This document shows, piece after piece, positions 36,531 through 52,295 of a DNA stretch of 64,000 nt (the first letter of the stretch is position 1; the number at the start of each line of letters is the position of its first letter). Under the pieces are notes generated by a model. It was not told where the DNA came from and did not search any database. It saw nothing but the letters and a program-made list of their open reading frames with translations. Source of the stretch: Ricordea florida. Taxonomy: Eukaryota > Cnidaria > Anthozoa > Corallimorpharia > Ricordeidae. The position numbers and the translations under genes are program-made. Location of the stretch: NCBI GenBank assembly GCA_949710005.1, contig OX453274.1, positions 27,566,240 through 27,630,239 on the forward strand, in the 5' to 3' direction.

Positions 36531-36635
36531 CCAATGAACCTGTCAGTCAAGTAGTTTTACATAAAAATACATTTTCCACGCGGTGGTAAGTTCTACCTTG
36601 GGCGACACGCGTTTTACAAATAAATCAGGTTGAGT

Positions 36636-37293
36636 AGAGAGTAGTATATGGGGGGTTCTGGCACACAATAAATTTCTGTCAAATTTGGGTTAGATTTGGG
36701 TTAGATTTTCTGTCAAATTTGGGCCATTTTTTCAGCACAATAAATTTCTGTCAAATTTGGGTTAGATTTGGGTTAGATTTTCTGTCAAATTTAAGTCAGA
36801 TTTTCAGCACAATAAATTTCTGTCAAATTTGGGTTAGATTTGGGTTAGATTTTCTGTCAAATTTAAGTCAGATTTTCAGCACAATAAATTTCTGTCAAAT
36901 TTGGGTTAGATTTGGGTTAGATTTTCTGTCAAATTTGGGCCATTTTTTCAGCACAATAAATTTCTGTCAAATTTGGGTTAGATTTGGGTTAGATTTTCTG
37001 TCAAATTTAAGTCAGATTTTCAGCACAATAAATTTCTGTCAAATTTGGGTTAGATTTGGGTTAGATTTTCTGTCAAATTTGGGCCATTTTTTCAGCACAA
37101 TAAATTTCTGTCAAATTTGGGTAAAAATTAAAAAAAAGATTAATTAGAAAATTGCACCAATGAATTTTCGCACACAATAAATTTCAGTCAAATTTGAGTA
37201 AAAACAAAGATTAACCAAGGATTTATAAAGTGCGAAAAAAAATATTTGAAATTATGATCTAAAGATTTGAAATAAACTATTAAAATGGAGCAA
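36636..37293. repeat. Left terminal inverted repeat with six 72-bp tandem units
   Basis: The repeat runs from the element end to ATGGAGCAA, including the start codon of the polymerase gene. Six full 72-bp units start at 36664, 36736, 36808, 36880, 36952 and 37024, with a partial one at 37096. Each has CACAATAAATTTCTGTCAAA, two TTTGGGTTAGA copies and one of two endings (GGGCCATTTTTTCAG or AAGTCAGATTTTCAG). The period is a multiple of three, which keeps a 24-residue repeat frame open by chance. The inner 170 bp are unique and match the right repeat almost exactly. Confidence 0.93.
37258..37268 (+). promoter_or_regulatory. TCTAAAGATTT box before the polymerase gene
   Basis: A variant of the TTTAAAGATT motif seen before most genes of the element, here 16 nt before the ATG at 37285. 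It lies in the inverted repeat, so the gene at the other end has the identical box. Confidence 0.5.
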
Positions 37294-40200
37294 CTACGCG
37301 GTTTATTAATGACACAATTGAGACCTCTAGCTAAATGGTATAATATTGAAAAATGGTATCGAATAAATAAAGAACCACTTATTGAAACGTTGTGGAATAT
37401 TACTGAAGTCAAAGATAATATTACAGAAATCATAAATAATATTCAAGAAATTATTGAATCATTAAATACCAATCCATATAGAACCGATCAGAATACTCCT
37501 CTGCCAATTCCTAGAAATAATGTACAAAATGATACACTAGAAAAAGAAGATGAAGAATGGGAAAAAATTAAGAATAATGCAAAATCTCGTAAGAGGCAAA
37601 AAAAGTATCATCGTGAAAAAAGTCAAGAAAGAAATATGAAACAACCAAAACTTGAAACTAAACTTCCAAAAACACAACTAACAAAAAATTTTATGAATGG
37701 TGAAAGAAATTATGAAAAGGAGGGTGCAAAACCAAAAACAAAACTCACTCCTAGAAAAAATATTCAAAAAAGAAAACTCGCACCTAATTTTATAAAACCA
37801 CAAAAGCCATCAAACAAAACTTTTAATTGGGGAAATTATTCATTTAAGGTGATGGCTAAAGATGAGTTTTCAAAAAAGCTTGCAGAATTAACCAATGAAA
37901 ATGTATTAAAACTTACTAATAATAAACAAACAAAACCAAAAAGACAGGTAAATATATCTGATAGTGTGAGAGATGAATTGAATGAAGAAAAAGAAGAAGA
38001 ATTCATTATAATAGAACGAGAGACAGCATTGAATAGATATTTGAAAGTATATAGGATAAATGGAAGGAAAGGGTATGATCCTAAAACTTACCTAAATAAA
38101 ATAAAAGAAAAAGTTGTGGATTTAATTAATAATAAAAAGAAACCAATAAAAATAAAATTTATATTAACAACTAAGTTAATAAAAGAGTCTCCAGATACAA
38201 ATCGTATTGAAGAAGAGGTTAGAAAATTCTTTCATTCACTTACAGAAATAATTACTGATTCTGATGATATAACCAAATTGTATGATACTATAGCAAATCA
38301 CATACTAAAGGAGTATGAAAAATATTTAAATAATGGTTATAAATGGAAATTTAGCAATATAATATGCCTTGATATTGGAATAACGCCATACAAACCGCTT
38401 AAGGGAAGTTCATATATTCCATTACCAGCAAAATTAGAAGCAAAAAAGGTAATTATTAACCAACAGAATTTTAATGATAATGAATGTTTTAAGTGGGCAG
38501 TAACTGAAGCCGTATTTCCAAGAGATAAAAATCCGCAAAGAGTAAATAATGAATTAAGAGAAAACTCAAAGAACTTCAACTGGACAGGAATAGAGTTCCC
38601 AGTTTCATTAAAAGATATTGATAAGTTTGAAAGGCAAAACCCCTACTATATTAATGTCTTAGGATATGAAAATGATTATGTATTTCCTTTAAGAATAAGT
38701 GATAATCAATTAGGAGATAATGTGATAAATTTAATTATGATATCAAATGATGAAAATAATCACTACTGTTGGGTAAAGAGTTTAAGTAGACTTTTATCGG
38801 CTCAAGCTAGTAAACATAAATGTAAGAGGCACTTTTGTGTTAGATGTTTTAACTCATTTCGGGAAATAGATTCATTAGAAAAACATACCGAATACTGCAA
38901 CAAAAACAAAGCAGTTAGGATTGATATGCCAAAAGATAAAAATGGAAATCCTTTATTTATTAAATTCGTTAATTATAAAAATAAAATGCGAGTGCCATTT
39001 TTAGTATATGCCGACTTTGAGTGCTATCCAGAGAAAATTGATATAGATATAAGTTGTCTAGATAATAGTAAAAGCTTTACTCAAAAGTATCAGAAACATA
39101 AACCATCTGGATTCAGTTATTATATCAAGTGTTTTGATGAGAATATATTACAAACAAATTTTGAAAAACTTGTAAGATATACTGCAAAATCTTCAGATGA
39201 TGATGTAGCACAGATATTTGTAGAATATTTAGAGAGAGATATTAGAAGAATTTATAATGAAATAATAAAACCAAGAAACAAAAAGTTATATTACTATAAA
39301 AGGAGTAATATGTCTGAAATAGATAAAAAAGACTATGAAAATGCTAAGAAATGTCATATATGTGAGTGTGAATTAGGAAAAGATAAGGTATTAGATCACT
39401 GTCACCTTACAGGAAAGTATAGAGGAGCAGCTCATGAAGATTGTAACTTGAATTTCAAGATTCCAAAGTTCATACCTATAGTATTTCATAATCTATCCGG
39501 ATATGATTCACATTTGTTTATTAAGAATCTTGGGAAAACAGAAGGTGAAATAACCCCCATAGCACAAAATGAGGAAAGGTATATTTCTTTCTCAAAAAAG
39601 ATTGTAGTTGATGAATATATAGATAAAAGTGGTGAGAAAAAGATAGTTAAGAGAGAAATGAGATTTATAGATTCATTCAAATTTATGTTAACCAGTCTTG
39701 ATGGCCTAGTTGATAATCTTACAAAATGTGGAAAGTGCGACGCGTGTAAACCAGGAGATTGTATAAAGAAATACATTGAAGATGGTAAGATAATTAAGTA
39801 TGAAGGTATTGGTAAATGTGGTCGATGTAAGAATTGTAATTTAGCTGAAAGTAAATGTCTTTCACCATCAGATAAATACCTAAATGAAGTTAAAAAGTAT
39901 TTTAAAGGTGATGAATTAAAGCTAGCGTTAAGAAAGGGTGTATATCCATATGATTATATTGACAGCTTTGATAAACTAAATGAAACCCAACTTCCACCAA
40001 TGGATGCATTTTTCTCAAAACTAAATGATGAAGATATAAATGAAGAAAATTACCAACACGCTAAAAATGTGTGGAAAACTTTTAATATGAAAACATTTAG
40101 GGAGTATCATGATCTATATCTCAAGTTAGATGTATTATTGTTAGCGGATGTATTTGAAAATTTTAGAGATGTTTGTATTAAAAATTATGGGTTAGATCCT

Positions 40201-41640
40201 GCTTGGTACTACACCTCGCCTAGTTTATCTTGGGATGCTATGTTAAAGTTAACGAAAGTAAAATTGGAGTTACTAACTGACATTAACATGTTACTTATGT
40301 TTGAAAAAGGTGTAAGAGGAGGTGTATCTCAGATTTCAACTAGATATGCTGAAGCAAACAATCCATATATGAAGAAATATGATCCAAACAAACCTAAAAA
40401 ATATATCATATATATTGACGCAAATAACTTATACGGAGGAGGAATGAGTAAACCACTACCTACTCATGGTTTTAAGTGGTTTGAAGAAGAAGATTTTGGA
40501 AATTGGAGAAATATACCATGCGTAATCGAGGTTGAATTAGAATATCCTGAACATCTTCATGATTTACATAATGATTATCCGCTAGCTCCAGAGAGACTTG
40601 TTGTTAACAATGTAGAAAAATTAATCCCAAACCTAAAAAATAAAACAAAGTATATAGTTCATCGAGAAACTCTAAAACTTTATGAAAGTTTGGGATTAAA
40701 AGTTACAAAGATTCACAGAGGTATTAAATTCAATGAGTCTGCATGGCTAAAACCCTACATTGATTTGAATACTAAACTAAGATCTCAAGCAAAGAATGAT
40801 TTTGAAAAAGATTTCTTTAAGTTAATGAACAATTCTGTATTTGGTAAAACCATGGAAAATATTAGAAAAAGGGTAGACATTAGATTAGTTACAAATAAAG
40901 AAGATGCAGAAAAATTAACAATAAAACCAAACTTTAATCATTTTACTATATTTAGTGAAGATCTGGCAGCTATCCATATGAATAAAAAAAGATTAACATT
41001 TAATAAACCTGTTTACTTAGGTATGTGTATTCTAGATTTAAGTAAAGCAATAATGTATGAATTTCATTATAATTATATCAAAAATAAATATGGAGAAAAG
41101 GCTAAGCTGTTGTTTACAGATACAGATAGTCTTGTATATGTTATAGAAACAGAAGATTTTTACAAGGATATAAGTCCAGATGTTAGAAAAATGTTTGACA
41201 CAAGTAATTATCCTAAAAACCATCCATCAGGTATAGAAACGGGTATGAATAAGAAATTAATCGGAATGTTTAAAGATGAAGCTGGTGGAATGATAATTAA
41301 GGAGTTTGTGGGATTGAGAGCGAAGTTATACGCTTATATGACTGAAAATGATGATGAAGTAAAGAAATGCAAGGGAATGAAGAAAGAAGTTATAAAAAAG
41401 AAAATAAAATTTAATAATTATAAGGAATGTCTATTAACAGGGGAAAAGCAATATAGAAAGATGAATGTAATTAGAAGTCATTTACATGATGTTTATACAG
41501 AAAGTGTTAATAAAGTTGCACTATCTGCTGATGATGATAAGAGAATAATTTGTAAAGATAAAATAAGTACTTTAGCCTACGGACATTATAGTCTCAAAAC
41601 AGAATCAGGTGGAAGTTCAGTATCAAATGGCACAACTTGA
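37285..41640 (+). CDS. polB: Protein-primed family B DNA polymerase (Polinton type), 1451 aa
   Basis: Replicates the linear element, presumably primed by a terminal protein. Layout: residues ~10-45, a SAP/Rho-N-like helical module (LRPLAKWYNIEKWYR); a Lys/Glu-rich linker with YEKEGAKPK at 143-151; a conserved segment ~397-495 (NECFKWAV to NNHYCWVKSLSRLL); a Cys/His zinc finger at ~512-538; exonuclease motif I YADFE ~575; an embedded endonuclease VII-like HNH module at ~689-723 (CHIC, DHCHLTGKYRGAAH, C); Exo II HNLSGYDSH ~735; Exo III YLKLD ~945; polymerase motif A DANNLYGGG with D1045; motif B KLMNNSVFGKT at 1179; motif C DTDS at 1279; and RAKLYAYM ~1347. All catalytic residues I can check are present. 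The start codon lies in the terminal repeat. The 3' end overlaps the convergent integrase gene by 55 bp. Confidence 0.95.
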   Translation: MEQLRGLLMTQLRPLAKWYNIEKWYRINKEPLIETLWNITEVKDNITEIINNIQEIIESLNTNPYRTDQNTPLPIPRNNVQNDTLEKEDEEWEKIKNNAKSRKRQKKYHREKSQERNMKQPKLETKLPKTQLTKNFMNGERNYEKEGAKPKTKLTPRKNIQKRKLAPNFIKPQKPSNKTFNWGNYSFKVMAKDEFSKKLAELTNENVLKLTNNKQTKPKRQVNISDSVRDELNEEKEEEFIIIERETALNRYLKVYRINGRKGYDPKTYLNKIKEKVVDLINNKKKPIKIKFILTTKLIKESPDTNRIEEEVRKFFHSLTEIITDSDDITKLYDTIANHILKEYEKYLNNGYKWKFSNIICLDIGITPYKPLKGSSYIPLPAKLEAKKVIINQQNFNDNECFKWAVTEAVFPRDKNPQRVNNELRENSKNFNWTGIEFPVSLKDIDKFERQNPYYINVLGYENDYVFPLRISDNQLGDNVINLIMISNDENNHYCWVKSLSRLLSAQASKHKCKRHFCVRCFNSFREIDSLEKHTEYCNKNKAVRIDMPKDKNGNPLFIKFVNYKNKMRVPFLVYADFECYPEKIDIDISCLDNSKSFTQKYQKHKPSGFSYYIKCFDENILQTNFEKLVRYTAKSSDDDVAQIFVEYLERDIRRIYNEIIKPRNKKLYYYKRSNMSEIDKKDYENAKKCHICECELGKDKVLDHCHLTGKYRGAAHEDCNLNFKIPKFIPIVFHNLSGYDSHLFIKNLGKTEGEITPIAQNEERYISFSKKIVVDEYIDKSGEKKIVKREMRFIDSFKFMLTSLDGLVDNLTKCGKCDACKPGDCIKKYIEDGKIIKYEGIGKCGRCKNCNLAESKCLSPSDKYLNEVKKYFKGDELKLALRKGVYPYDYIDSFDKLNETQLPPMDAFFSKLNDEDINEENYQHAKNVWKTFNMKTFREYHDLYLKLDVLLLADVFENFRDVCIKNYGLDPAWYYTSPSLSWDAMLKLTKVKLELLTDINMLLMFEKGVRGGVSQISTRYAEANNPYMKKYDPNKPKKYIIYIDANNLYGGGMSKPLPTHGFKWFEEEDFGNWRNIPCVIEVELEYPEHLHDLHNDYPLAPERLVVNNVEKLIPNLKNKTKYIVHRETLKLYESLGLKVTKIHRGIKFNESAWLKPYIDLNTKLRSQAKNDFEKDFFKLMNNSVFGKTMENIRKRVDIRLVTNKEDAEKLTIKPNFNHFTIFSEDLAAIHMNKKRLTFNKPVYLGMCILDLSKAIMYEFHYNYIKNKYGEKAKLLFTDTDSLVYVIETEDFYKDISPDVRKMFDTSNYPKNHPSGIETGMNKKLIGMFKDEAGGMIIKEFVGLRAKLYAYMTENDDEVKKCKGMKKEVIKKKIKFNNYKECLLTGEKQYRKMNVIRSHLHDVYTESVNKVALSADDDKRIICKDKISTLAYGHYSLKTESGGSSVSNGTT

Positions 41641-42578
41641 ATTTCTTCTCTTACAAAACCTCGCCTTGGTCCATCTATTAAATAATATAAAACCGGCTGA
41701 TTAGGTGAAATCACGCTTCTAGAAATATCAAAAACTTTAATACTCCAAATAGGATCTGTAGCCCGCCTTTTTTCACCACCCTCAAGTTCTCCAGGAGAAA
41801 GTAAGTATCTAACTTTAACATAAGATGGTAGTCTAACCTCATCAAGCCCCACCTCCCGCCGGTAATTTTTTGGTTCGATATCAACTTTTTTCTGTTTTAT
41901 AGCCTCATCAGGCTCTTTACCAGTTATTCTAGTTGGTGTATTATTCAAAGTTTTTATGATACCTGGTAATCGTTTCACCCATACTCTTGATCTTTCATCA
42001 CTAATCATTTCTTGTGCATATTGATGACTAAATAATCTTTCGCCTAATATTCTGTTTGCTCTTTCAACAAATGCTTGAGCTCTATGATTTCCAGCTTCAC
42101 TTCTTTGAATGTTCACATTATGATAATTCATAAGTTTTGTAACCTCACCCATAAATTCTTTTCCTGGATCAACAATTAATGTTTTGGGATATTTTAACTT
42201 CCTGGAATATATTTTTTCAAAAGCATTTGAAATTTCTCGGCTTTCTTTTGAGGTTAATGGTTCAGCATCTTTGTATCTAGAGGCAACATCAACCACAACT
42301 AATGTATATTTATATGTTTTTCTTCCAACTCTATCATGAGGTAAAAATAATAAATCCGCCTGGTGAATCTGATTAGGTTTATCCACGGCCCAGTGCGGCC
42401 TAGGAATATACTTTGGAGCTGGCAGATATATTTGCCATATTGCCTGTTTTTCAAGCCATTTTTTTGCTGAATCTTCACTAACTTTCGCTTTTTCAGCTAA
42501 TTTATTAATCGCAGAATATCCTTTCCAATAACCCTCAGTTGAATAATATATTTTTGATAATATGCTTTCGTTACTCAT
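41586..42578 (-). CDS. int: Retroviral-type DDE integrase, 330 aa
   Basis: Joins the linear element DNA to host chromosomes and makes the 5-6-bp target duplication seen at the ends. The N-terminus (1-50) looks helix-turn-helix-like rather than the HHCC zinc domain of many integrases. The rve core has D75 (HQADLLFL), D137 (LIVDPGKEF) and E172 (AFVERANRIL), a D-D35E spacing. The C-terminus (~255-320, VRYLLSPGELEGG to PRRGFVREEIQVV) is likely an SH3-like DNA-binding domain. It is transcribed leftward, divergent from the capsid gene, with only 34 bp between the two ATGs. Confidence 0.93.
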   Translation of the reverse strand: MSNESILSKIYYSTEGYWKGYSAINKLAEKAKVSEDSAKKWLEKQAIWQIYLPAPKYIPRPHWAVDKPNQIHQADLLFLPHDRVGRKTYKYTLVVVDVASRYKDAEPLTSKESREISNAFEKIYSRKLKYPKTLIVDPGKEFMGEVTKLMNYHNVNIQRSEAGNHRAQAFVERANRILGERLFSHQYAQEMISDERSRVWVKRLPGIIKTLNNTPTRITGKEPDEAIKQKKVDIEPKNYRREVGLDEVRLPSYVKVRYLLSPGELEGGEKRRATDPIWSIKVFDISRSVISPNQPVLYYLIDGPRRGFVREEIQVVPFDTELPPDSVLRL

Positions 42579-42587
42579 TTAAAGATT
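42578..42587 (+). promoter_or_regulatory. TTTAAAGATT box before the capsid gene
   Basis: It lies 25 nt before the capsid ATG at 42613 and directly abuts the integrase start codon on the other strand. The 34-bp gap therefore has to hold both promoters. Confidence 0.6.
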
Positions 42588-42612
42588 ACTACACCTTTCC
42601 TTAAAATAAAAT

Positions 42613-43854
42613 ATGACAACCATATCTGAAAAAATTAACCCAAACAGGATTCCAAGAGATCCACTCGGTTTGAAAGCGGAATCAACATTGCATAGAATTA
42701 CGCTAAACCCATCATCAGCTAATCCTGCAGAAACGCTGTACATAAATATTCCTAAACTTTCTGAAAATTTAGTGATTGTACCTGGAAGTGTATATCTAGT
42801 ATTTAACTTGACTGTTGAGGGGCATGAAGATAACACCCTAGTGAATAATGTGGGCAGTAATCTTGTATCCAGACTAAGGGTTCTTTTTGGCGGGGAAACA
42901 CTACAGGATACTCAAAGATATGATCTATTTCAAACCTACCATGACTTATTCTTAACAGATGAAGAACGGGAGGATAGATTAAGGCGGGGAATATCTTCTG
43001 TAAACATGAGGAAGCTACGGACAAATGCGGGTGATAAGGTAGACACAGATGCAAAGGAAGTAGCTCTTGCCGTCGTACACAACACCAAGTACCATATCCC
43101 ACTAAAACATCCTGTTCTCAACGATCATGGCGTTTTCTATCCAAAAGCATTAGATCATCAACTAATATTTGAGATTACACTGGCTCCAGTTAACGATATT
43201 GTTGTTTATTCTGACAAGACAAAGACCCCAACTTACAAAATCACAAACCTTGAGTTGGAATATTCTTGTATATCAAGCGAATACTTAGCTCGCGAGGCAC
43301 AGGCGGCTTATCAGGTTGGTAAAGGATTCTTTTATGAAAATGTCACTCTACACAAAACTTTCACCATATCCCGGCCTACAGACAGTGTTATAAATCAGCA
43401 TATTAATCTACCGAGAAGGTCAATTACGGGGATATTATGTTTGTTTACATTACCATATGGTGAAGGAGCGCGAGATTCTGAGAATTTTTTCAATCCAGGT
43501 ATAACCTCAATCAATATCGATGTTAATGGCGTACCAAACCGTTTCTACTCTAAGGGAATGGTACCTTCAGACCTATGGGAGTCGATAAAGAAACGTTTCA
43601 GTGGTTCTTCCCTTTGGTCAGTAAAGGAAAAGGAATTTTATAGTAAAAAGTTTGCTCTGTGGTTAGATTTGAGAACTCACCCGGATAATGGTATTCATGG
43701 AGGGGGTCTGGCCTTAAATAACGCCCAAGATGGTATAAAAATTGAAATTAAACGAAAACTTAGTGGGTCTGGTATTATGACTTGTTACATGTTTGTGGTA
43801 GCTGATGCATTAATGGAAATAATGAATTCCAACTTAAGGTCTATTATGTATTAG
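42613..43854 (+). CDS. mcp: Major capsid protein candidate, double-jelly-roll type, 413 aa
   Basis: Predicted main shell protein. The sequence is beta-rich with no membrane segment. The N-terminal half has a jelly-roll-like run (IVPGSVYLVFNLTVEGHEDN, LVSRLRVLFGGETLQDTQRY, LIFEITLAPVNDIVVYSD). The C-terminal half has INIDVNGVPNRFYSKGM, FALWLDLRTHPDNGIHGG and IKIEIKRKLSGSGIMTCYMF, a pattern I know from hexon-like capsid proteins of Polinton/adintovirus elements. It is shorter than many Polinton capsid proteins. The position just before the packaging ATPase (7-bp gap) is the classic capsid-ATPase pairing. The family is inferred from pattern and context; a structure prediction would settle it. 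Confidence 0.8.
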   Translation: MTTISEKINPNRIPRDPLGLKAESTLHRITLNPSSANPAETLYINIPKLSENLVIVPGSVYLVFNLTVEGHEDNTLVNNVGSNLVSRLRVLFGGETLQDTQRYDLFQTYHDLFLTDEEREDRLRRGISSVNMRKLRTNAGDKVDTDAKEVALAVVHNTKYHIPLKHPVLNDHGVFYPKALDHQLIFEITLAPVNDIVVYSDKTKTPTYKITNLELEYSCISSEYLAREAQAAYQVGKGFFYENVTLHKTFTISRPTDSVINQHINLPRRSITGILCLFTLPYGEGARDSENFFNPGITSINIDVNGVPNRFYSKGMVPSDLWESIKKRFSGSSLWSVKEKEFYSKKFALWLDLRTHPDNGIHGGGLALNNAQDGIKIEIKRKLSGSGIMTCYMFVVADALMEIMNSNLRSIMY

Positions 43855-43861
43855 TTAAAAA

Positions 43862-44524
43862 ATGGAAGAATTAAGAGATAAAATTCCTTTTCATTGCATT
43901 ATAACGGGCCCAACAAATTGCGGAAAGACAAAGTACATAATTGATCAACTCCGAGGCCCATTCCGAAAAGTGTTTGAATTCATTGTTCTAATATGTCCAA
44001 CTTATTCTAAAAATAAAACCTATCATAATTTTGCCTTAGGAGATAAACATTTCTATGTATTATCACCCGATTCTAGTAACATTGATGAGATTAACGAATT
44101 GTTAACTGATTGCCAAACTTTATTCTCTGGAACAAATACCTTAATAATTCTAGATGATTGTGCTGTTTCAAATGATCTGAAGAAAAGATCGAACAAGTTT
44201 ATTGATTTAGCATTCTCTGGAAGACATCATGGATTATCAATGTGGGTTCTCACGCAGCAATTAACATCAATAGCAAAACCATTCCGTGAAAATGTGGCTT
44301 GCGTAGTTACTTTCCATAACCCATCGAAAAAAGGTATGAAGATGTTTTTCGAAGATTATGGTGGTGATTTAGACCCTGAAACTAGTAAAAAGTTTGTGAA
44401 ATTATTAAAAAATGAAAAATATTCTAGACTCTGTTTGTGTTTACGGCACCCATTTAATTGTTATTTGGAAGTTCCAAACGGAACTCGACAAAAGGGAGCA
44501 ACCTGCAGTGATTTAAAGACCTAA
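43862..44524 (+). CDS. FtsK/HerA-like (A32) genome-packaging ATPase, 220 aa
   Basis: Predicted to pump the element DNA into capsids. Walker A is GPTNCGKT at residues 16-23; Walker B is TLIILDDCA with D98-D99; a polar sensor WVLTQQLTS lies near 128-136. The size and the SGRHHGLSMWVLTQQ block fit the A32-type ATPases of Polintons, virophages and large DNA viruses. It starts 7 bp after the capsid stop with no TTTAAAGA box of its own, so it is probably expressed from the capsid transcript. Confidence 0.92.
   Translation: MEELRDKIPFHCIITGPTNCGKTKYIIDQLRGPFRKVFEFIVLICPTYSKNKTYHNFALGDKHFYVLSPDSSNIDEINELLTDCQTLFSGTNTLIILDDCAVSNDLKKRSNKFIDLAFSGRHHGLSMWVLTQQLTSIAKPFRENVACVVTFHNPSKKGMKMFFEDYGGDLDPETSKKFVKLLKNEKYSRLCLCLRHPFNCYLEVPNGTRQKGATCSDLKT
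44512..44520 (+). promoter_or_regulatory. TTTAAAGAC box before the 167-aa gene
   Basis: It lies 26 nt before the ATG at 44547 and overlaps the last codons of the ATPase gene. Same core as the other boxes. Confidence 0.6.
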
Positions 44525-44546
44525 CTGTAGGTAAGAAAATTGTAAA

Positions 44547-45050
44547 ATGGCAGAAGTTGAAGATTATATTGAGCAAGAAAAGAATGAGGTAAAAGATAAT
44601 GAAGTTGAAATAAAACAAGAATCACTTGCCATCCTCGCGGCTCTTGGAACCACAAAGGAATATTTAGGGGTTGATATGAGTCTTGGTGATGTAAAAAGAT
44701 TATCAGTAAAAGACATTGAAAAATATTATAATCGATATCAGGCAGTATTGGGTAAGAAAATTAATGGTGGGTTGGTAGATTCATCTCTTCAATTAGTTTC
44801 TAAAGTTATTTCTTACATGGTTCCCGTGGATGATATAGAAGCTCTTTGTAAAGATTTGAAGAATGATGATTTGGTTAATCGTGAACTGACAAACATTGTA
44901 GGTCTATTAGCATTAAAAGCAGGAAGATTGGCAGCACTTGCTAGCGGGCTATTCCAGGTTGCTAAACACGTTAAAATAGGTAAAATACAACAAGTTACAG
45001 ATGATACTAACAAAACTGAGCAGGCTACTGATGGTAATGATATGATTTAA
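44547..45050 (+). CDS. Helical protein of unknown function, 167 aa
   Basis: An acidic N-terminus (1-25) is followed by mainly helical sequence (LAILAALGTTKEYLGVDMSL, LKNDDLVNRELTNIVGLLAL, GRLAALASGLFQVAKHVKIG). The last segment is amphipathic or weakly hydrophobic rather than a clear membrane span. There is one cysteine and no catalytic pattern. I recognise no family. Sitting right after the packaging ATPase and before small membrane proteins, it is likely a virion component. It has its own TTTAAAGA box. Confidence 0.75.
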   Translation: MAEVEDYIEQEKNEVKDNEVEIKQESLAILAALGTTKEYLGVDMSLGDVKRLSVKDIEKYYNRYQAVLGKKINGGLVDSSLQLVSKVISYMVPVDDIEALCKDLKNDDLVNRELTNIVGLLALKAGRLAALASGLFQVAKHVKIGKIQQVTDDTNKTEQATDGNDMI

Positions 45051-45055
45051 AGATT
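45046..45055 (+). promoter_or_regulatory. TTTAAAGATT box before the 127-aa gene
   Basis: It lies 22 nt before the ATG at 45078 and overlaps the stop of the 167-aa gene. The stretch TTTAAAGATTTCTTA and the following GTAAAAA are nearly the same as before the 70-aa and 400-aa genes. Confidence 0.65.
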
Positions 45056-45077
45056 TCTTAATGATAAGTAAAAAATT

Positions 45078-45461
45078 ATGTCAGAAGAAGTAGAAGAAAT
45101 AAACGGGGGAGCCGAACAAATTACAATGGATCCAAAACCTGAAAAGAAAGATCCTAAAAAAGTCGCTGCTGGTAAAAAATTAGCTGAATATAACAAAAAA
45201 GCGAAAGAAGCATTAGCTAGGGAGCAAATGAAACGAGAAAATGATAGTGAAACTAAACAAGAAAATGGAAAAGCATGGCTTCCAGAGCTATCTTTTACTG
45301 CTGTATTATCAATAGTTGGTATAGGGTTTACTGCATTTGACATGTTTATGAGATATTATAATAAAAACCCTAATGAAATGCCTCAACCCACAAGATCCGT
45401 AGGACCAGCTCCTCTGAATATCCCCACCCAACCACAACCTCCAAAAATGGGAATGATATGA
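45078..45461 (+). CDS. Single-pass membrane protein, unknown function, 127 aa
   Basis: A charged Lys/Glu-rich N-terminal half (KPEKKDPKKVAAGKKLAEYN) likely forms a helix. One hydrophobic span (~72-92, FTAVLSIVGIGFTAFDMFM) follows, then a short Pro/Gln-rich tail (PLNIPTQPQPPKMGMI). No signal peptide and no known domain. Context suggests a virion or assembly membrane protein. Confidence 0.7.
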   Translation: MSEEVEEINGGAEQITMDPKPEKKDPKKVAAGKKLAEYNKKAKEALAREQMKRENDSETKQENGKAWLPELSFTAVLSIVGIGFTAFDMFMRYYNKNPNEMPQPTRSVGPAPLNIPTQPQPPKMGMI

Positions 45462-45469
45462 GTAAGCGA

Positions 45470-45479
45470 TTTAAAGATT
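45470..45479 (+). promoter_or_regulatory. TTTAAAGATT box before the 70-aa gene
   Basis: It lies 21 nt before the ATG at 45501. The following TCTTACTGATGAGTAAAAA is identical to the stretch before the 400-aa gene, which points to a duplicated promoter cassette. Confidence 0.65.
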
Positions 45480-45500
45480 TCTTACTGATGAGTAAAAATT

Positions 45501-45713
45501 ATGGAAAACAAACTTGCGAAAACTGTTACTGATTCAGCAGTACTTATTGGATTGGCGTCCTTAGTTGGATATGTAGCTAAAAAGGCCATGAGAGAATCAT
45601 TTTTGAGCGACCCCTCCTCAAGTATTACAAACTATGCTAAATGGGTAGCTGTTCTATCAGGTAGTATGTACCTAAAAACTTATTTAGAGGATCAAAAGAT
45701 TTTACCGGCCTAA
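45501..45713 (+). CDS. Small hydrophobic protein, 70 aa
   Basis: Two hydrophobic stretches: AVLIGLASLVGYVA (~14-27) and WVAVLSGSMYLKTYL (~49-63). No known domain. It has its own upstream box and is followed closely by another small membrane protein, so it is likely real despite its size. Confidence 0.65.
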   Translation: MENKLAKTVTDSAVLIGLASLVGYVAKKAMRESFLSDPSSSITNYAKWVAVLSGSMYLKTYLEDQKILPA

Positions 45714-45738
45714 AATAGAATAACCTCAAATTTAAAAA

Positions 45739-46131
45739 ATGGCAACAATAGCAATGATGTTTGGGGGGGCTATTTTGAATGCAACCGCCTTTGTTGGCGG
45801 ATCATATCTTGCAAAATATCTATCAGGTGATAAAACAGATACAGAGAAAATACGGCACGATAAGGCAATAGAAAAGTATCAAAAAGATTACGCTGATTAT
45901 CAGGAAAATAGACAGAAACTAATTGCTTGGGAAATGAAGAAAAAAGATGAAAAATATCAAGCATCAAAAAATCTTTCAAAAACGGATGAAGCTTTGAAAT
46001 TATATAGTCAAGTGCATGAACCAAAATTCTCTGATTATTATAGACCAAGTGAAAATCAAAAGACGGGTGAGATGTTATATGTGGGCGGTGGTATGTTAGC
46101 ATTAGGTTATATGGCTAGTAAATTATTTTAG
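45739..46131 (+). CDS. Membrane-anchored coiled-coil protein, 130 aa
   Basis: An N-terminal hydrophobic segment (MMFGGAILNATAFVGGSYLA), a long charged helical middle (DKAIEKYQKDYADYQENRQK) and a C-terminal hydrophobic segment (MLYVGGGMLALGYMASKLF). Only a bare TTTAAA at 45731-45736 precedes the ATG directly, so it may share the upstream transcript. Function unknown. Confidence 0.68.
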   Translation: MATIAMMFGGAILNATAFVGGSYLAKYLSGDKTDTEKIRHDKAIEKYQKDYADYQENRQKLIAWEMKKKDEKYQASKNLSKTDEALKLYSQVHEPKFSDYYRPSENQKTGEMLYVGGGMLALGYMASKLF

Positions 46132-46147
46132 TTAATTTTGTGACCAG

Positions 46148-46157
46148 TTTAAAGATT
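46148..46157 (+). promoter_or_regulatory. TTTAAAGATT box before the 400-aa gene
   Basis: It lies 22 nt before the ATG at 46180, with the same TTCTTACTGATGAGTAAAAA sequence as at 45477. Confidence 0.65.
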
Positions 46158-46179
46158 TCTTACTGATGAGTAAAAAATC

Positions 46180-47382
46180 ATGGAAGAAGAAGAACCATTA
46201 ATACCAAAATTTGAAAAAACTGATCTAGATGATGGCGATGGTGATGAAACAATTCAAATGGAACCAATATCATCTACCACTAGGACAATTACCCCTGATG
46301 ATGCGACAGCAGAAACTTCATTTGGCGGTAGGGACTATGAGAAGGAGGGGGCTAGACCTAAATTACCTAGTGATAAATATGATAATAGGATGAAAGCTTT
46401 GCAATACATAAAAAGTTTGTTTCCGGATTTCAACCCTTTGGATTCTCCATTTACAGCAGAATGGGATAAGGAGGGTAATTTGTTGGTTAAATTGAGTAAT
46501 CAGAGAAATGCTGTAGAAAATATATTGATTGATAAAGATGGCGTAATAAAACTTGATAAGTTGGGTAAAATAATAATAAAAGCTTTAGGCGCTGATTACG
46601 AATCCATGCTTATAAAAAATAATAATCTTTTATCGCAATTGAATGAAGCTAATGAACAAAATATGGAATTACTTAATGTAGTTCAGGGATTGGAAGCAAC
46701 CACAAAAGTATATCCTATGGAAATTAGTAGATATGAAGAAAGAGAAAAAGAACTGCGCCAATTCATTGAGAGACAACAGGTAGAAAAAGCTGAAAATAAA
46801 AGTCTTTTTGATGAAACCATTAAACAGAATATAGAATTAAAAATACAGAAAGATAAACTTTTTAATGAAATTAATGTATACAAAGATGAAATAGACAAGT
46901 ATAAGAAGGGACAGTCAAATTTAACAATGTTAGAACGTAGTAATGAAAGATTACAAGCTGAAGTTAATAAATTTGAAGAACTAGCTAGAAAGAGTATTAT
47001 TTACAACCAAGAACAAATGAGCGATCTGGAGAGTAAAAATGAAGAAATAATTAAAAATCTGCCATTACGAGAGCGTGTGAAGTACATCTTCAAAAAATAT
47101 GGTTTTACAGTATTTGCAGTTGTGAGTGCTGTTGGTGTTGTTATTGGTGTTATAGTTTCTAATCTTTCCAAAGGCCTATCAACATTAGGTAAAGGTGTGG
47201 GAAATGGTTTTAAAGCTATTGGTAAAAAACTAGTTGAAATATTGCCTGGAATGGTTGGAGCGATTGTAAGCTTTCTTTTCAAAACAGCAGGTGAGGTTAT
47301 TGGATTTTTAGGTAAGAATGCTTGGCTTTTGATAATGGCTGTAGTTCTATATTTTGTGGAAAGGGTAAAGAAGAGTAGATAA
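46180..47382 (+). CDS. Long coiled-coil protein with C-terminal membrane segments, 400 aa
   Basis: An acidic N-terminus (MEEEEPLIPKFEKTDLDDGD) is followed by the motif YEKEGARPK at 53-61, also present in the polymerase linker. A globular part is next (~65-140), then an extended coiled coil (~140-290). The C-terminus has hydrophobic or glycine-rich segments (FAVVSAVGVVIGVIVSNLS, GMVGAIVSFLFKTAGEVIGF, AWLLIMAVVLYFVERV). It has no cysteine. It could be a membrane-bound spike, fibre or tape-measure-like virion protein; this is inference only. Confidence 0.72.
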   Translation: MEEEEPLIPKFEKTDLDDGDGDETIQMEPISSTTRTITPDDATAETSFGGRDYEKEGARPKLPSDKYDNRMKALQYIKSLFPDFNPLDSPFTAEWDKEGNLLVKLSNQRNAVENILIDKDGVIKLDKLGKIIIKALGADYESMLIKNNNLLSQLNEANEQNMELLNVVQGLEATTKVYPMEISRYEEREKELRQFIERQQVEKAENKSLFDETIKQNIELKIQKDKLFNEINVYKDEIDKYKKGQSNLTMLERSNERLQAEVNKFEELARKSIIYNQEQMSDLESKNEEIIKNLPLRERVKYIFKKYGFTVFAVVSAVGVVIGVIVSNLSKGLSTLGKGVGNGFKAIGKKLVEILPGMVGAIVSFLFKTAGEVIGFLGKNAWLLIMAVVLYFVERVKKSR

Positions 47383-47400
47383 CAAACCTGGCCGTATCTA

Positions 47401-47409
47401 TTTAAAGAT
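47401..47409 (+). promoter_or_regulatory. TTTAAAGAT box before the 213-aa gene
   Basis: It lies 25 nt before the ATG at 47435, followed by TGTTGATCAGTAAAATA, a variant of the cassette seen upstream. Confidence 0.6.
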
Positions 47410-47434
47410 ATCATGTTGATCAGTAAAATACAAT

Positions 47435-48076
47435 ATGGATGACTACAATAGAATTTATCCTAATGTGCCTGTTAATTCAGACCCGAGTTCCTCATTTAAT
47501 ACTGTTAATTTCAGACTACAAAAGTCATGCGAAGTACTACAAAATCTTCAAAAGGAAAGTAAACATTACGAGGATGTTAGGAAAAAGTATAATCGGGCTA
47601 GAGGTATATTTACAAAAATAAGTGTTAGTAGTGGAGTGATTTCAGTTATCCTATCTGCAAGTGGGCTTGGAACCTCCCTTACTGGTTTTGGTGCTGCTGT
47701 TGGTATCCCATTAGGTGCGGTGGGAGGAATTTGTGGGGTAATATCGGTTGGATTAGGTTCGGCTTCTAAAAAACTTTCACATAAAGTTAGTAAACATGAA
47801 CAGACAGTTTCTTTAGCAAAAGCAAAAGTAAACACTATTCACGACTTGGTTTCAAAGGCTCTAAAAGATAACGCTATATCCGATCAAGAATTTTCATTAA
47901 TTTTATCAGAGGTGGATAAGTTTGAAAAACTAAAACTCGAAATCCGACAGAAAAACAGGAAAGATGGGGAAAAAAACCTAAACATGAATCAGTTAAGAAC
48001 AGAGGTTCGAGCGGAAATTATAAAGGAGTTAACCGGTCCCGAACTTGGAAATTTTCATATGAGAGAACGCCAGTAG
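47435..48076 (+). CDS. Protein with central Gly-rich hydrophobic hairpin, 213 aa
   Basis: The N-terminal helix (SCEVLQNLQKESKHYEDVRK) leads to a Gly/Ala/Ser-rich hydrophobic block (~63-106; SSGVISVILSASGLGTSLTG, FGAAVGIPLGAVGGICGVIS) that could insert in a membrane as a hairpin. A charged helical C-terminal half follows (LVSKALKDNAISDQEFSLIL). The arrangement suits a membrane-active virion protein such as an entry or lysis factor, but I do not recognise a family. Confidence 0.7.
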   Translation: MDDYNRIYPNVPVNSDPSSSFNTVNFRLQKSCEVLQNLQKESKHYEDVRKKYNRARGIFTKISVSSGVISVILSASGLGTSLTGFGAAVGIPLGAVGGICGVISVGLGSASKKLSHKVSKHEQTVSLAKAKVNTIHDLVSKALKDNAISDQEFSLILSEVDKFEKLKLEIRQKNRKDGEKNLNMNQLRTEVRAEIIKELTGPELGNFHMRERQ

Positions 48077-48112
48077 GATGGAATTGTTATGCTGGTATTA
48101 GAAAAGAGGTGA

Positions 48113-48122
48113 TTTAAAAGAA
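48113..48122 (+). promoter_or_regulatory. TTTAAAAGAA box before the 521-aa gene
   Basis: A one-base-longer variant of the common box, 18 nt before the ATG at 48141. Confidence 0.5.
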
Positions 48123-48140
48123 ACACGTTATGAACAAAAA

Positions 48141-49706
48141 ATGTCATTATTCAATGATTTCAGAAATAAATATCCAAAGGCAGATCAAAGTCAATTTGAA
48201 TTTGTATCTGATTCGTATGGTGGATACATAAGTTGGAAAGTTGATGGTACAACAATAATGTCAAATGATGATCCTACTGGAAAAACATGGACTGATGCCT
48301 TATCACCTCGTTTGAAAAGACTTTTATGGAAAGATTTAGGATTGGATGACAGTGATTTGATTTCATTTCCTGAAAGTTTAACCATAACAAATCAATCTTA
48401 TCCTATACCAGCTATTAATTTTGATGACTTTACAACTGATTTAACAAAAATGCTAACCTTTCAAGATATATACGTTTCAAATACGAAGAAATTCACAGCA
48501 AAGATGAGAAACATATTTACATCGCAAGTTTTAACATTCAAATCTGGAAAAAAGAGTAGAAAATGGTTGAACGCCCCTGATATGAATTATTGGCCTCAAC
48601 AACTTAACTTTGCAGTTTGGTGTGCAACATCTGGTTGCGGCATAAGCCCTTTTGAGAGCCTAAATTATCCTAAAGTAGTGAGTAGCTTCATAAAATTTCA
48701 CATATATTTCACAATAAGGCGGATATTATATGAAATGAAACTGCCTTTGCCTGATGAGCAACCTTTTGTAATAAACAACAATCCTTATAGTAAAGTTGCA
48801 TATCAACGATTGTGTGCAGAATTTGGAATTTCCAATAATTCCGATTTTAGATGGAAAGGGGGTAGAAACGGCGGATTGGGAGATATATTCCTTGATTATG
48901 GTTCCGGATATCGTGGAAAAGGAGGGGGGTATCAAAATGTACATATAGTAAGAAATTACGATGTTGAAGCGAATCAATGGCCCGGCGAAGGTAATAAATT
49001 TGCTGATGAAGGCGGTAAGAAAGAAAAAGGTAATTTAATTTCATTTATCCGTAACGATGACTTTGCTGATTTCAAATATTCTTGGTTTATCCCAACAAGT
49101 GGGCATGGTCTCACTAAAGCCGGACTTGGTAGATTGAATCGATCCGCTGAAGCTTTTGTTTACTGCATATTGGGGGCACAAGTTAACACAAGAAATTCAA
49201 TTTACGGTAATGGCGGTGGCGCAATCGAAACACAACAAGAATTCTTGGCTTTATTTGAAAGTAGTGTGATCGAGAATGACATTTCTAGTTCGATTCAAAG
49301 ATATCAATTAGCTGTACAGGAATCTAAATTACGGCTTGATTTAGCTATTGCTCCTGGTGTATGGTTGATGCCAAGTAATATGATAATCAACACTGAAAGC
49401 GTGACAGGTTTTAATAACAAACTCATGAAAGCGAGTAATGATATGAATTTTGGTGTGAATAATTCCCTAAACACTGAAGCAAAACAGGTTGGAATAAGTC
49501 ATAACTTAGGATCTTCAAAGTTAAAGTTACCTCATATTCTCCTGGAAGGTAAAACTGAAACGAAACCAAAACCAGACTCGACGAAACAAGAAATCCGCAG
49601 TACCAGCTTATCGGACGAAAATAATATTGACTCAACGCAGCATGAAAAGAATATATTAGCATTGGCAGTTGCCGCGGGTGGATTAGCGTGGTTTCTATTT
49701 CGGTAG
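48141..49706 (+). CDS. Large structural-type protein with C-terminal membrane anchor, 521 aa
   Basis: A soluble body of about 490 residues is followed by a single C-terminal hydrophobic segment (NILALAVAAGGLAWFLFR), a tail anchor. Conspicuous blocks: YWPQQLNFAVWCATSGCGIS (~147-166), a Gly-rich stretch (GSGYRGKGGGYQNVHIVRNY), SGHGLTKAGLGRLNRSAEAF and AIAPGVWLMPSNMII. Comparable blocks occur, as I recall, in unnamed proteins of other cnidarian Polinton-like elements, so it is probably a conserved part of the particle. No enzyme motif is seen. It is followed by the 56-bp array. Confidence 0.75.
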   Translation: MSLFNDFRNKYPKADQSQFEFVSDSYGGYISWKVDGTTIMSNDDPTGKTWTDALSPRLKRLLWKDLGLDDSDLISFPESLTITNQSYPIPAINFDDFTTDLTKMLTFQDIYVSNTKKFTAKMRNIFTSQVLTFKSGKKSRKWLNAPDMNYWPQQLNFAVWCATSGCGISPFESLNYPKVVSSFIKFHIYFTIRRILYEMKLPLPDEQPFVINNNPYSKVAYQRLCAEFGISNNSDFRWKGGRNGGLGDIFLDYGSGYRGKGGGYQNVHIVRNYDVEANQWPGEGNKFADEGGKKEKGNLISFIRNDDFADFKYSWFIPTSGHGLTKAGLGRLNRSAEAFVYCILGAQVNTRNSIYGNGGGAIETQQEFLALFESSVIENDISSSIQRYQLAVQESKLRLDLAIAPGVWLMPSNMIINTESVTGFNNKLMKASNDMNFGVNNSLNTEAKQVGISHNLGSSKLKLPHILLEGKTETKPKPDSTKQEIRSTSLSDENNIDSTQHEKNILALAVAAGGLAWFLFR

Positions 49707-49723
49707 ATGGCTGGATTTTTCAG

Positions 49724-50256
49724 CTTACGCGTAAGTCGATTTTTTACTACAGGTTAATTAACATAACAATTTTTACCGGCTTACGCGTAAGTCGATTTTT
49801 TACCACAGGTTAATTAACATAACAATTTTTACCGGCTTACGCGTAAGTCGATTTTTTACTACAGGTTAATTAACATAACAATTTTTACCGGCTTACGCGT
49901 AAGTCGATTTTTTACTACAGTTTAATTAACATAACAATTTTTACCGGCTTACGCGTAAGTCGATTTTTTACCACAGGTTAATTAACATAACAATTTTTAC
50001 CGGCTTACGCGTAAGTCGATTTTTTACTACAGGTTAATTAACATAACAATTTTTGCCGGCTTACGCGTAAGTCGATTTTTTACTACAGGTTAATTAACAT
50101 AACAATTTTTACCGGCTTACGCGTAAGTCGATTTTTTACTACAGTTTAATTAACATAACAATTTTTACCGGCTTACGCGTAAGTCGATTTTTTACTACAG
50201 TTTAATTAACATAACAATTTTTGCCGGCTTACGCGTAAGTCGATTTTTACCAAAGG
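49724..50256. repeat. Ten-copy 56-bp array with two palindromes per unit
   Basis: The perfect 12-bp palindrome CTTACGCGTAAG starts at 49724, 49780, 49836, 49892, 49948, 50004, 50060, 50116, 50172 and 50228, an exact 56-bp period. Each unit also has GTTAATTAAC (or TTTAATTAAC) and CATAACAATTTTT. Copies differ by one or two bases. The array fills the whole gap between the 521-aa gene and the box of the 211-aa gene. It could be a protein-binding enhancer, replication or packaging site. Confidence 0.93.
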
Positions 50257-50271
50257 TGGTTATTATATAAA

Positions 50272-50280
50272 TTTAAAGAC
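50272..50280 (+). promoter_or_regulatory. TTTAAAGAC box before the penton-like gene
   Basis: It lies 19 nt before the ATG at 50300 and directly follows the palindrome array, preceded by TTATATAAA. Confidence 0.6.
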
Positions 50281-50299
50281 CAGCTTCGCTGAAAACAAA

Positions 50300-50935
50300 A
50301 TGTTAAGCATAACAATGTATGAGGCAGAAACTAGGATTTATTTAGATCCTCCTCTTAAAAATCTTCGGGAGATACAACTCCTGGATTGCAATTTAAAGAC
50401 CAAAAGATTGATTAATTTCAAGGATAGACAGATAATATTCAATGATAAGAATCAAGGATTCATAACAATTCAACCCGGCACATACTCTCTTCGTAACATT
50501 CAATCAATATTTCTTAATGATCCTGATGTGGAAAAGATAACAATAATTGAGACTGATACTGTTGACTATCTTTATTCCAATAAGAACTTCAAAGTTAAAC
50601 TTACGAGAGGTTTGGGGTTTGGTTTAGGCGTTCCTGATGTAATAAATCCGGGTAAATTATACCCCATAAATATTCAGATTAAGGAACCACTGAGACTTAT
50701 GTGTAGTATAGTGGATAATAAATTTTCATATATGAATAAAACCAAAAATGGAGAAATTGGGAAACTATCACCATCACAACTACTTGCAAACATACCCTCA
50801 AAGGATTATCCAACAATTCCAGTTCGAAAATATGATACTCTAATAAACCACTTTGATTTAAGCATATTAGACAATCAATGGGAAAAACTTGATCTGAAGG
50901 GTTCCCCTATAACTTTTAGTTTAAGATTTAGGTAA
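50300..50935 (+). CDS. Penton-like minor capsid candidate, 211 aa
   Basis: Predicted all-beta protein of single-jelly-roll size without membrane segments. It begins MLSITMYEAETRIYLDPPL and ends in a strand pair (NHFDLSILDNQWEKL, then LKGSPITFSLRFR) like the ends of penton-type proteins in Polinton/adintovirus elements. The central GLGFGLGVPDVINPG loop is notable. Its role as vertex protein is inferred from size, predicted fold and the need of such a partner for the capsid protein. It faces the leftward zinc-repeat gene across a perfect hairpin. Confidence 0.65.
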   Translation: MLSITMYEAETRIYLDPPLKNLREIQLLDCNLKTKRLINFKDRQIIFNDKNQGFITIQPGTYSLRNIQSIFLNDPDVEKITIIETDTVDYLYSNKNFKVKLTRGLGFGLGVPDVINPGKLYPINIQIKEPLRLMCSIVDNKFSYMNKTKNGEIGKLSPSQLLANIPSKDYPTIPVRKYDTLINHFDLSILDNQWEKLDLKGSPITFSLRFR

Positions 50936-50940
50936 ATTTT

Positions 50941-50972
50941 TGTTATGTAACCCTTTGTTGGGTTACATAACA
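50941..50972. terminator. Perfect 13-bp stem hairpin between convergent genes
   Basis: TGTTATGTAACCC and GGGTTACATAACA are exact inverse arms around TTTGTT. It lies 6 bp after the penton-like stop and just beyond the stop of the opposing gene at 50979. This suits a bidirectional 3'-end or termination signal; function is inferred from position. Confidence 0.65.
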
Positions 50973-50978
50973 TTAATT

Positions 50979-51425
50979 TTATGGCCCACATTCTTTACAA
51001 TTTTTCCTACGCTTATTGTGTTTGCACATACATATACTACAATGCCATATTTGTTTTTCATGAATACATATATCATATCCTCCACACTCTTTACAAAACT
51101 TTTTCTCTTTATTGTGTTCGCATAATCTAGATCCGCCGCAATCCTTACATACATATTTATATTTTTTGTGTTCGCATATTTGTGATCCCACACAATACCT
51201 ACAGTGATATTTATACCTTCCATGAACACAATTATATTTATTTGTTTTATTATTTTTATTTTCGGGTAAAAGTTTAGTTAGTGTGCCGTCTATATCAAAC
51301 AACACATCAATTAGTTCTGATTTACACATTCGATACCATCCTTTAATACCTTGTTCGCGAGCAATTTGTTTAAGATTTTTCACATTTTGTTTTACATCCA
51401 TTAGACTTTTAATACCTTGCTCCAT
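50979..51425 (-). CDS. SAP-like plus Cys/His zinc-repeat protein, 148 aa
   Basis: The first three codons (MEQ) lie in the right terminal repeat. Residues ~20-45 (LKQIAREQGIKGWYRMCKSE) resemble the N-terminal module of the polymerase. Then come five Cys/His units of the form C-x-H-x(n)-C-x-x-C: CVHGRYKYHCRYC, CEHKKYKYVCKDCGG, CEHNKEKKFCKECGG, CIHEKQIWHCSIC and CKHNKRRKNCKECG. Similar C-x-H/CGG repeats are known in giant viruses and algae. It is a likely nucleic-acid-binding protein, perhaps acting at the element ends. Confidence 0.8.
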   Translation of the reverse strand: MEQGIKSLMDVKQNVKNLKQIAREQGIKGWYRMCKSELIDVLFDIDGTLTKLLPENKNNKTNKYNCVHGRYKYHCRYCVGSQICEHKKYKYVCKDCGGSRLCEHNKEKKFCKECGGYDICIHEKQIWHCSICMCKHNKRRKNCKECGP

Positions 51426-52290
51426 TTTAATAGTTTATTTCAAATCTTTAGATCATAATTTCAAATATTTTTTTTCGCACTTTATAAATCCTTGGTTAAT
51501 CTTTGTTTTTACTCAAATTTGACTGAAATTTATTGTGTGCGAAAATTCATTGGTGCAATTTTCTAATTAATCTTTTTTTTAATTTTTACCCAAATTTGAC
51601 ATAAATTTATTGTGCTGAAAATCTGACTTAAATTTGACAGAAAATCTAACCCAAATCTAACCCAAATTTGACAGAAATTTATTGTGCTGAAAAAATGGCC
51701 CAAATTTGACAGAAAATCTAACCCAAATCTAACCCAAATTTGACAGAAATTTATTGTGCTGAAAATCTGACTTAAATTTGACAGAAAATCTAACCCAAAT
51801 CTAACCCAAATTTGACAGAAATTTATTGTGCTGAAAATCTGACTTAAATTTGACAGAAAATCTAACCCAAATCTAACCCAAATTTGACAGAAATTTATTG
51901 TGCTGAAAATCTGACTTAAATTTGACAGAAAATCTAACCCAAATCTAACCCAAATTTGACAGAAATTTATTGTGCTGAAAAAATGGCCCAAATTTGACAG
52001 AAAATCTAACCCAAATCTAACCCAAATTTGACAGAAATTTATTGTGCTGAAAATCTGACTTAAATTTGACAGAAAATCTAACCCAAATCTAACCCAAATT
52101 TGACAGAAATTTATTGTGCTGAAAATCTGACTTAAATTTGACAGAAAATCTAACCCAAATCTAACCCAAATTTGACAGAAATTTATTGTGCTGAAAAAAT
52201 GGCCCAAATTTGACAGAAAATCTAACCCAAATCTAACCCAAATTTGACAGAAATTTATTGTGTGCCAGAACCCCCCATATACTACTCTCT
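51417..52290. repeat. Right terminal inverted repeat with nine 72-bp tandem units
   Basis: Reverse complement of the left repeat: outer end, tandem units, 170-bp unique inner part and the start codon region up to TTGCTCCAT. It has about nine full 72-bp units (roughly 51597-52265) against six on the left, so the two repeats differ by about 216 bp. The two unit endings are mixed in a different order than at the left. The long open frame across it is a by-product of the 72-bp period. Confidence 0.92.
51442..51452 (-). promoter_or_regulatory. TCTAAAGATTT box before the zinc-repeat gene
   Basis: Identical to the box before the polymerase gene because both lie in the terminal repeats, here serving the leftward gene starting at 51425. 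Confidence 0.5.
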
Positions 52291-52295
52291 TGAGT

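What the first reader, a model, noticed from the sequence alone, without database searches (positions are those of the whole stretch)
36636..52290. Intact endogenous Polinton/adintovirus-like element with full virion gene set
The sequence shows matching ends, a target duplication (TGAGT/TTGAGT) and twelve open genes with no stops. Polymerase B, D-D35E integrase, packaging ATPase and a jelly-roll capsid candidate are all in one unit. Integrity implies recent insertion or selection and possibly particle formation. Several genes have no recognised family, so the element may represent a little-described cnidarian lineage.
Basis: partly seen in the sequence, partly recalled or inferred. Interest (0 to 1): 0.92.

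Follow-up and report, generated by a model that had tools for sequence, protein, structure and literature searches.

The report
Intact Polinton-type integrated DNA virus
A complete-looking, probably recent insertion of a virus-like element with its own polymerase, integrase and capsid genes; it belongs to a known group but shows a few unusual traits.

The parts
36630..36635 (.). left copy of target-site duplication TTGAGT (6-bp reading)
   Evidence: sequence
36636..37293 (+). left TIR; starts AGAGAG, holds 6.4 copies of a 72-bp unit, ends inside the PolB start (ATGGAGCAA)
37285..41640 (+). [quoted passage not shown] order: SAP/Rho_N-like N-terminus, terminal-protein-like region, OTU Cys/His motifs, ExoI, endonuclease VII-like insert, ExoII, ExoIII, A, B, C
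   Evidence: motifs (recalled); Endonuclease_7 22.1 bits against cut-off 23.6, phrog endonuclease VII E 1.9e-6; no PolB HMM hit
41586..42578 (-). retroviral-type integrase, 330 aa, D75-D137-E172 (34 residues between)
   Evidence: PF00665 E 4.2e-9
42613..43854 (+). major capsid protein, double jelly-roll, 413 aa
   Evidence: PF16903 E 5.7e-5, 23.2 bits against cut-off 24; 8 of 120 listed homologues carry PF16903; AF2; fold matches
43862..44524 (+). genome-packaging ATPase (A32/FtsK-HerA type), 220 aa, Walker A GPTNCGKT and Walker B LIILDD
   Evidence: PF04665 E 1.3e-11
44547..45050 (+). 167-aa protein, no family above cut-off
45078..45461 (+). 127-aa protein with one hydrophobic segment (71-91)
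45501..45713 (+).
45739..46131 (+). 130-aa protein with N-terminal hydrophobic segment
46180..47382 (+). 400-aa protein with several C-terminal hydrophobic segments (306-393)
47435..48076 (+). 213-aa protein with central hydrophobic segments (82-111)
48141..49706 (+). 521-aa conserved protein of unknown fold with a C-terminal helix
   Evidence: 1289 homologues; AF2 pLDDT 59.8; no Foldseek match with E<=0.001
49723..50248 (.). 9.4 tandem copies of a 56-bp unit holding two palindromes (CTTACGCGTAAG, GTTAATTAAC)
50300..50935 (+). 211-aa conserved protein, penton (single jelly-roll) candidate from recalled resemblance; not tested
   Evidence: 59 homologues; alignment; best PDB profile match E 0.22
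50979..51425 (-). 148-aa protein: SAP/Rho_N-like N-terminus resembling that of PolB, then five C-x-H-x6-C-x2-C repeats
   Evidence: PF07498 21.2 bits against cut-off 24.9
51417..52290 (-). right TIR; 9.4 copies of the 72-bp unit, reaches into the start codon of the 148-aa gene
52290..52295 (.). right copy of target-site duplication TTGAGT (6-bp reading)
42578..42585 (+). TTTAAAGA box, 35 nt before the MCP start; the other six exact ones in this position start at 44512, 45046, 45470, 46148, 47401, 50272

Best explanation
This is an intact, probably recent Polinton (Maverick) provirus, perhaps of the branch of the published cnidarian Polintons (that placing is a weak inference). Shown: bounded insertion, TIRs, target duplication, 13 open genes, predicted double jelly-roll capsid fold, integrase and ATPase families. 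Inferred: it replicates as linear DNA by protein priming at the TIR ends (terminal-protein region fused to PolB, released by an OTU-like domain), the integrase inserts the ends with a 5-6 bp staggered cut, and in permissive cells the ATPase packages the DNA into an icosahedral capsid, with the 211-aa protein as likely vertex protein. The two outermost genes share a TIR-encoded upstream region and start codon, and 7 of the 10 genes from the capsid gene to the 211-aa gene have a TTTAAAGA box 28-35 nt before the ATG, which suggests a common switch. The confidence given is for the identity as an intact Polinton; particle formation I put at about 0.7.
Against: No polymerase HMM matched (Pfam, PHROGs, NCBIfam). 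No maturation protease found. Penton untested. No relative in five IMG/VR scans, so no sign there of free particles, though the tool warns that records near the window's genome may be left out. The MCP/521-aa contig overlap of 4 is within the range of its control (maximum 5). Cnidarian placing has no direct test.
Confidence: 0.88

Rival explanations
1. A capsid-bearing transposon: a Polinton that amplifies inside genomes and does not form particles; capsid genes are open because the copy is young.
For: No relative in five IMG/VR scans. Of the 120 listed MCP relatives, 59 have a longest contig of 100 kb or more, so many are chromosomal. No maturation protease found.
Against: Full-length relatives of the capsid are common at 60-65% identity with 99-100% coverage, and of the 521-aa protein at about 50%, which is hard to explain without selection for their function. 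No dN/dS could be computed: only proteins were at hand.
Confidence: 0.25
2. It is an adintovirus (Eupolintoviridae) in the strict sense.
For: OTU-like Cys/His motifs before the polymerase (recalled), rve integrase; an adintovirus capsid protein ranks eighth in the viral fold library (E 9.9e-16, TMq 0.59).
Confidence: 0.1
3. Virophage-like provirus: its late genes are driven by the transcription machinery of a co-infecting large DNA virus.
For: Repeated TTTAAAGA box before 7 of 13 genes; giant-virus-like capsid fold; endogenous virophages of Cafeteria are reactivated by a giant virus (passages of PMC10945749). That virophages share promoters with their giant viruses is recalled.
Against: The box could equally be a TATA-like host promoter; no helper virus or inducing condition is known; the box was not compared with any giant-virus promoter.
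Confidence: 0.05
4. Assembly artefact or contaminant contig joined to host DNA.
For: GC is 0.28-0.36 in 2-kb windows inside against 0.36-0.45 in those just outside.
Against: Target duplication on both sides and flanks that belong to one retroelement copy.
Confidence: 0.02

Closest known systems
Polintons/Mavericks (class Polintoviricetes), including Hydra P1-HM and Nematostella P-3_NV
   Same: Integrase, packaging ATPase, double jelly-roll capsid, long TIRs, (AG)3//(CT)3 ends, 15-20 kb size. The Hydra capsid retrieved only PBCV-1 VP54 by HHpred; here too the best folds are NCLDV capsids.
   Different: No maturation protease found; 11 of 13 genes on one strand, unlike the two opposed modules of most vertebrate Mavericks; repeat-built TIRs; penton candidate 6.4 kb from the capsid gene.
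Stylophora coral adintovirus (StCAV)
   Same: Polinton with an OTU-type domain on the polymerase.
   Different: In StCAV the terminal protein is a separate gene; here the corresponding region appears fused to PolB (motifs recalled).
Eupolintoviridae (former Adintoviridae)
   Same: OTU-like motifs on PolB, rve integrase.
   Different: No integrase chromodomain found; capsid not shown to be BLASTP-related to adintovirus hexons (definition read; renaming).
Polinton-like viruses (PLV, PgVV group)
   Same: No maturation protease; the PgVV capsid was placed with Nematostella Polintons.
   Different: PLVs mostly lack PolB and rve integrase; this element has the integrase and the polymerase motifs.

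Membership tests
[quoted passage not shown]
   Exo I-III and A, B, C motifs present in the expected order (motifs recalled), but no PolB HMM matched
Polinton/Maverick | retroviral-type (rve) integrase | tested here: met
   PF00665 E 4.2e-9, above cut-off
Polinton/Maverick | long TIRs with AG/CT ends and about 6-bp target duplication | tested here: met
   658/874 bp TIRs, (AG)3//(CT)3, TGAGT or TTGAGT (end motifs read)
Polinton/Maverick | packaging ATPase | tested here: met
   PF04665 E 1.3e-11, above cut-off
Polinton/Maverick | double jelly-roll major capsid protein | tested here: met
   AF2 model and fold searches
Polinton/Maverick | single jelly-roll penton | not tested
Polinton/Maverick | Ulp1/adenain-type maturation protease (identifiable in 74% of 72 Polintons, 'nearly all'; so usual, not obligatory) | tested here: not met
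   no match in 18 ORFs scanned with Pfam at E<=1; ORFs under 90 aa other than the 70-aa one were not scanned
Polinton/Maverick | terminal protein and OTU protease domains fused to PolB | tested here: inconclusive
   motif positions only: GSSYIPLP 374, NECF 399, NNHY 491 (recalled)
Adintovirus / Eupolintoviridae | integrase with C-terminal chromodomain | tested here: not met
   only rve above cut-off; no chromodomain at E<=1
Adintovirus / Eupolintoviridae | hexon recognisable by BLASTP to Alpha or Beta adintovirus hexons | not testable with these tools
   no reference sequences by name were at hand; published network places cnidarian capsids outside
Polinton-like viruses | mostly without PolB and rve integrase | tested here: not met
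   rve integrase present, PolB motifs present
Virophages (mavirus-like) | virophage-type capsid protein | tested here: inconclusive

The most novel reading that the evidence does not exclude
The shared TTTAAAGA box, the apparent lack of a maturation protease and the giant-virus-like capsid mark a provirus that waits for a large DNA virus: its late genes would be switched on by the helper's transcription machinery, making it an inducible, virophage-like element in an animal genome.
Probability: 0.04. Interest if true: 0.92.

Novelty: new member of a known kind. Interest (0 to 1): 0.45.

Why it matters
Polinton particles had not been observed according to the abstract of PMC8097293, and PMC4028283 calls finding actively reproducing ones an important experimental challenge. 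An intact, apparently young copy with a probable shared promoter box is a good place to look for expression and encapsidated DNA. An apparent lack of the maturation protease beside a polymerase-integrase set would help to place its branch between Polintons and polinton-like viruses.

Tried and rejected
IMG/VR scans with the MCP, ATPase and PolB single sequences and with the MCP and 521-aa alignments found no relative. Copy number, stop-bearing copies and empty alleles in the host genome could not be examined: the genome search was unreachable every time. The 521-aa model is poor (mean pLDDT 59.8); its Foldseek search gave no match with E<=0.001 and 28 with E<=10; I did not run VIA-align on it. 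Profile searches of PDB sequences with the three alignments gave 1, 2 and 0 matches at E<=10, none better than 0.22; single-sequence searches with MCP, PolB and integrase gave nothing useful. PHROGs gave an 'endolysin' label for the 400-aa protein (E 2e-4), and Pfam gave labels such as lentivirus Vif for small proteins, below the curated cut-offs; I reject these as chance. An exact empty site was sought within the window and only partly found. The name Penelope-like for the flanking retroelement is recalled; the only family match there is RVT_1, below cut-off.

TTTAAAGA over the whole window is not enriched (14 matches against a mean of 9.4; 13 of 100 shuffles reached 14); only its position before start codons is. 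I chose motif and spacing after seeing the upstream sequences, so 7 of 13 is post hoc. The integrase and 521-aa genes have only one-mismatch copies at 27 nt, PolB and the 148-aa gene share one inside the TIR, and the ATPase and 130-aa genes have none near that distance.

A quick tree of 118 MCP rows (window plus 117 of 120 listed hits; 3 outside 380-430 aa dropped) puts the window in a set of 19 rows whose other 18 lie on contigs under 100 kb (SH-aLRT 98), but rows carry no organism names, so it cannot test 'cnidarian'. For alignments I used 38 of 120 listed MCP hits, 47 of 120 listed 521-aa hits and 48 of 59 211-aa hits, chosen by eye for length and spread.

Papers: PMC10120064 (passages, section 9), PMC11071308 (outline, passages, section 11), PMC4028283 (outline, parts 1-2 of 4), PMC4642659 (passages), PMC8097293 (passages, section 7, start of abstract), PMC11071296 (passages), PMC12451622 (passages), PMC10945749 (passages); others seen in search listings only. 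Not held: PMC8502044, PMC1450207, PMC11426020. From recall: the 5'-AG and TC-3' termini as an older rule for Polintons, the PolB, OTU and terminal-protein motifs, and the resemblance of the 211-aa protein to Polinton pentons.
Full report
Boundaries. The two ends of the unit are inverted repeats of 658 and 874 bp. From the outer tips the first 445 bases are identical; from the inner ends the first mismatch is at index 185, in the last, partial repeat unit, so the parts outside the arrays (28 and 171 bp) are identical. The length difference is 216 bp, three 72-bp units. Each array mixes two unit types, and no single deletion of three neighbouring units turns one order into the other (my reading), so at least two changes separate them. 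Near-identity suggests a young insertion, but replication could also make the two ends alike. The tips read AGAGAG and CTCTCT, the (AG)3//(CT)3 motif described for vertebrate Mavericks. The duplication is TGAGT, or TTGAGT if the T at 52290 is counted as host. Joined flanks align on both sides to one retroelement copy, 54513-54807 (95%) and 54823-54862 (92.5%), with 206 bp at the site that the other copy lacks. The target was probably a Penelope-like remnant (name recalled) already carrying a small insertion.

Genes. Thirteen stop-free ORFs cover 93% of the space between the TIRs. The integrase (PF00665) and ATPase (PF04665) pass curated cut-offs; the capsid just misses PF16903 (23.2 against 24 bits), though 8 of 120 listed homologues carry that domain. 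The polymerase has exonuclease and polymerase motifs in order and OTU-like Cys/His motifs and an endonuclease VII-like insert, but no polymerase HMM in Pfam, PHROGs or NCBIfam matched it or, for Pfam, its parts. The assignment therefore rests on recalled motifs.

What is missing or unproven. No Ulp1/adenain-type protease was found among the 12 long ORFs, the 70-aa ORF and five antisense ORFs. Krupovic et al. could identify this gene in 74% of 72 Polintons; another paper says nearly all Polintons have it and PLVs lack it. The lack is unusual but not disqualifying. The 211-aa protein is my penton candidate from recall and was not folded. The 521-aa protein has 1289 relatives and no known fold from a poor model.

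Relatives. Searches gave 635 capsid, 1289 521-aa and 59 211-aa relatives at E<=1e-3, of which 120, 120 and 59 were listed. Recurring contig lengths indicate that the genes travel together; the signal is strong for 521-aa with 211-aa (11 shared, control maximum 3) and weaker for MCP with 521-aa (4, control maximum 5). The closest capsid is 92% identical. The 24 closest capsids all have a longest contig under 100 kb, while 59 of the 120 listed have one of 100 kb or more, so many relatives are chromosomal, probably in more than one species. In a tree of 118 rows the window groups with short-contig rows.

Regulation. TTTAAAGA lies 28-35 nt before 7 of 13 start codons (MCP, 167-, 127-, 70-, 400-, 213- and 211-aa genes). 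PolB and the 148-aa gene have TCTAAAGA at 27 nt inside the TIR; the 521-aa and integrase genes have one-mismatch copies at 27 nt; the ATPase and 130-aa genes have none near that distance. Only 1 of 531 other ATGs in the element has the exact box at 25-38 nt, and a Markov control averaged 0.05 genes with a maximum of 2. The count is post hoc, and the motif is not enriched over the window as a whole. Three genes (127-, 70- and 400-aa) share a nearly identical 29-bp leader. The TIRs run into the ATG of both outer genes, whose N-termini are also alike (score 57, shuffled maximum 43, 0 of 500), so both ends carry the same upstream region, start codon and a related first domain.

Interpretation. The anatomy fits a Polinton provirus that replicates by protein priming, integrates by its rve integrase and encodes a capsid. 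Particle formation is inferred. Published work says cnidarian capsids are the only metazoan ones outside the main Maverick-Polinton cluster and describes Hydra, Nematostella and Stylophora elements. Paper searches combining Polinton, Maverick or adintovirus with cnidarian, coral, Nematostella, Hydra, Anthozoa, capsid or late-promoter terms listed no paper whose title or abstract start describes this gene set or box. That is limited to the held library, to what the listings show, and to 25 of 34 and 25 of 27 papers.

Noticed in passing
36664-37122 and 51588-52262: The 72-bp TIR unit holds two copies of GGGTTAG, which resembles the TTAGGG telomere repeat; probably coincidence.
   Followed up: no
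49723-50248: About nine copies of a 56-bp unit with two perfect palindromes between the 521-aa and 211-aa genes; possible origin, terminator or packaging signal.
   Followed up: partly
50979-51425: Five C-x-H-x6-C-x2-C repeats spaced 18, 18, 18 and 14 residues apart, probably zinc-binding.
   Followed up: partly
19360-20004 and 23553-24049: Two separate arrays with closely similar 106-bp minisatellite units.
   Followed up: no
52290-54862: Retroelement fragments (Penelope-like by recall; RVT_1 below cut-off) in opposite orientations around the right end.
   Followed up: partly
32156-32677: Minus-strand rve integrase fragment (PF00665, below cut-off), likely a decayed LTR retrotransposon.
   Followed up: no
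8355-9167 and 60016-60324: Two related ORF fragments (KMRKENITPSD...) on opposite strands, a dispersed repeat of unknown type.
   Followed up: no
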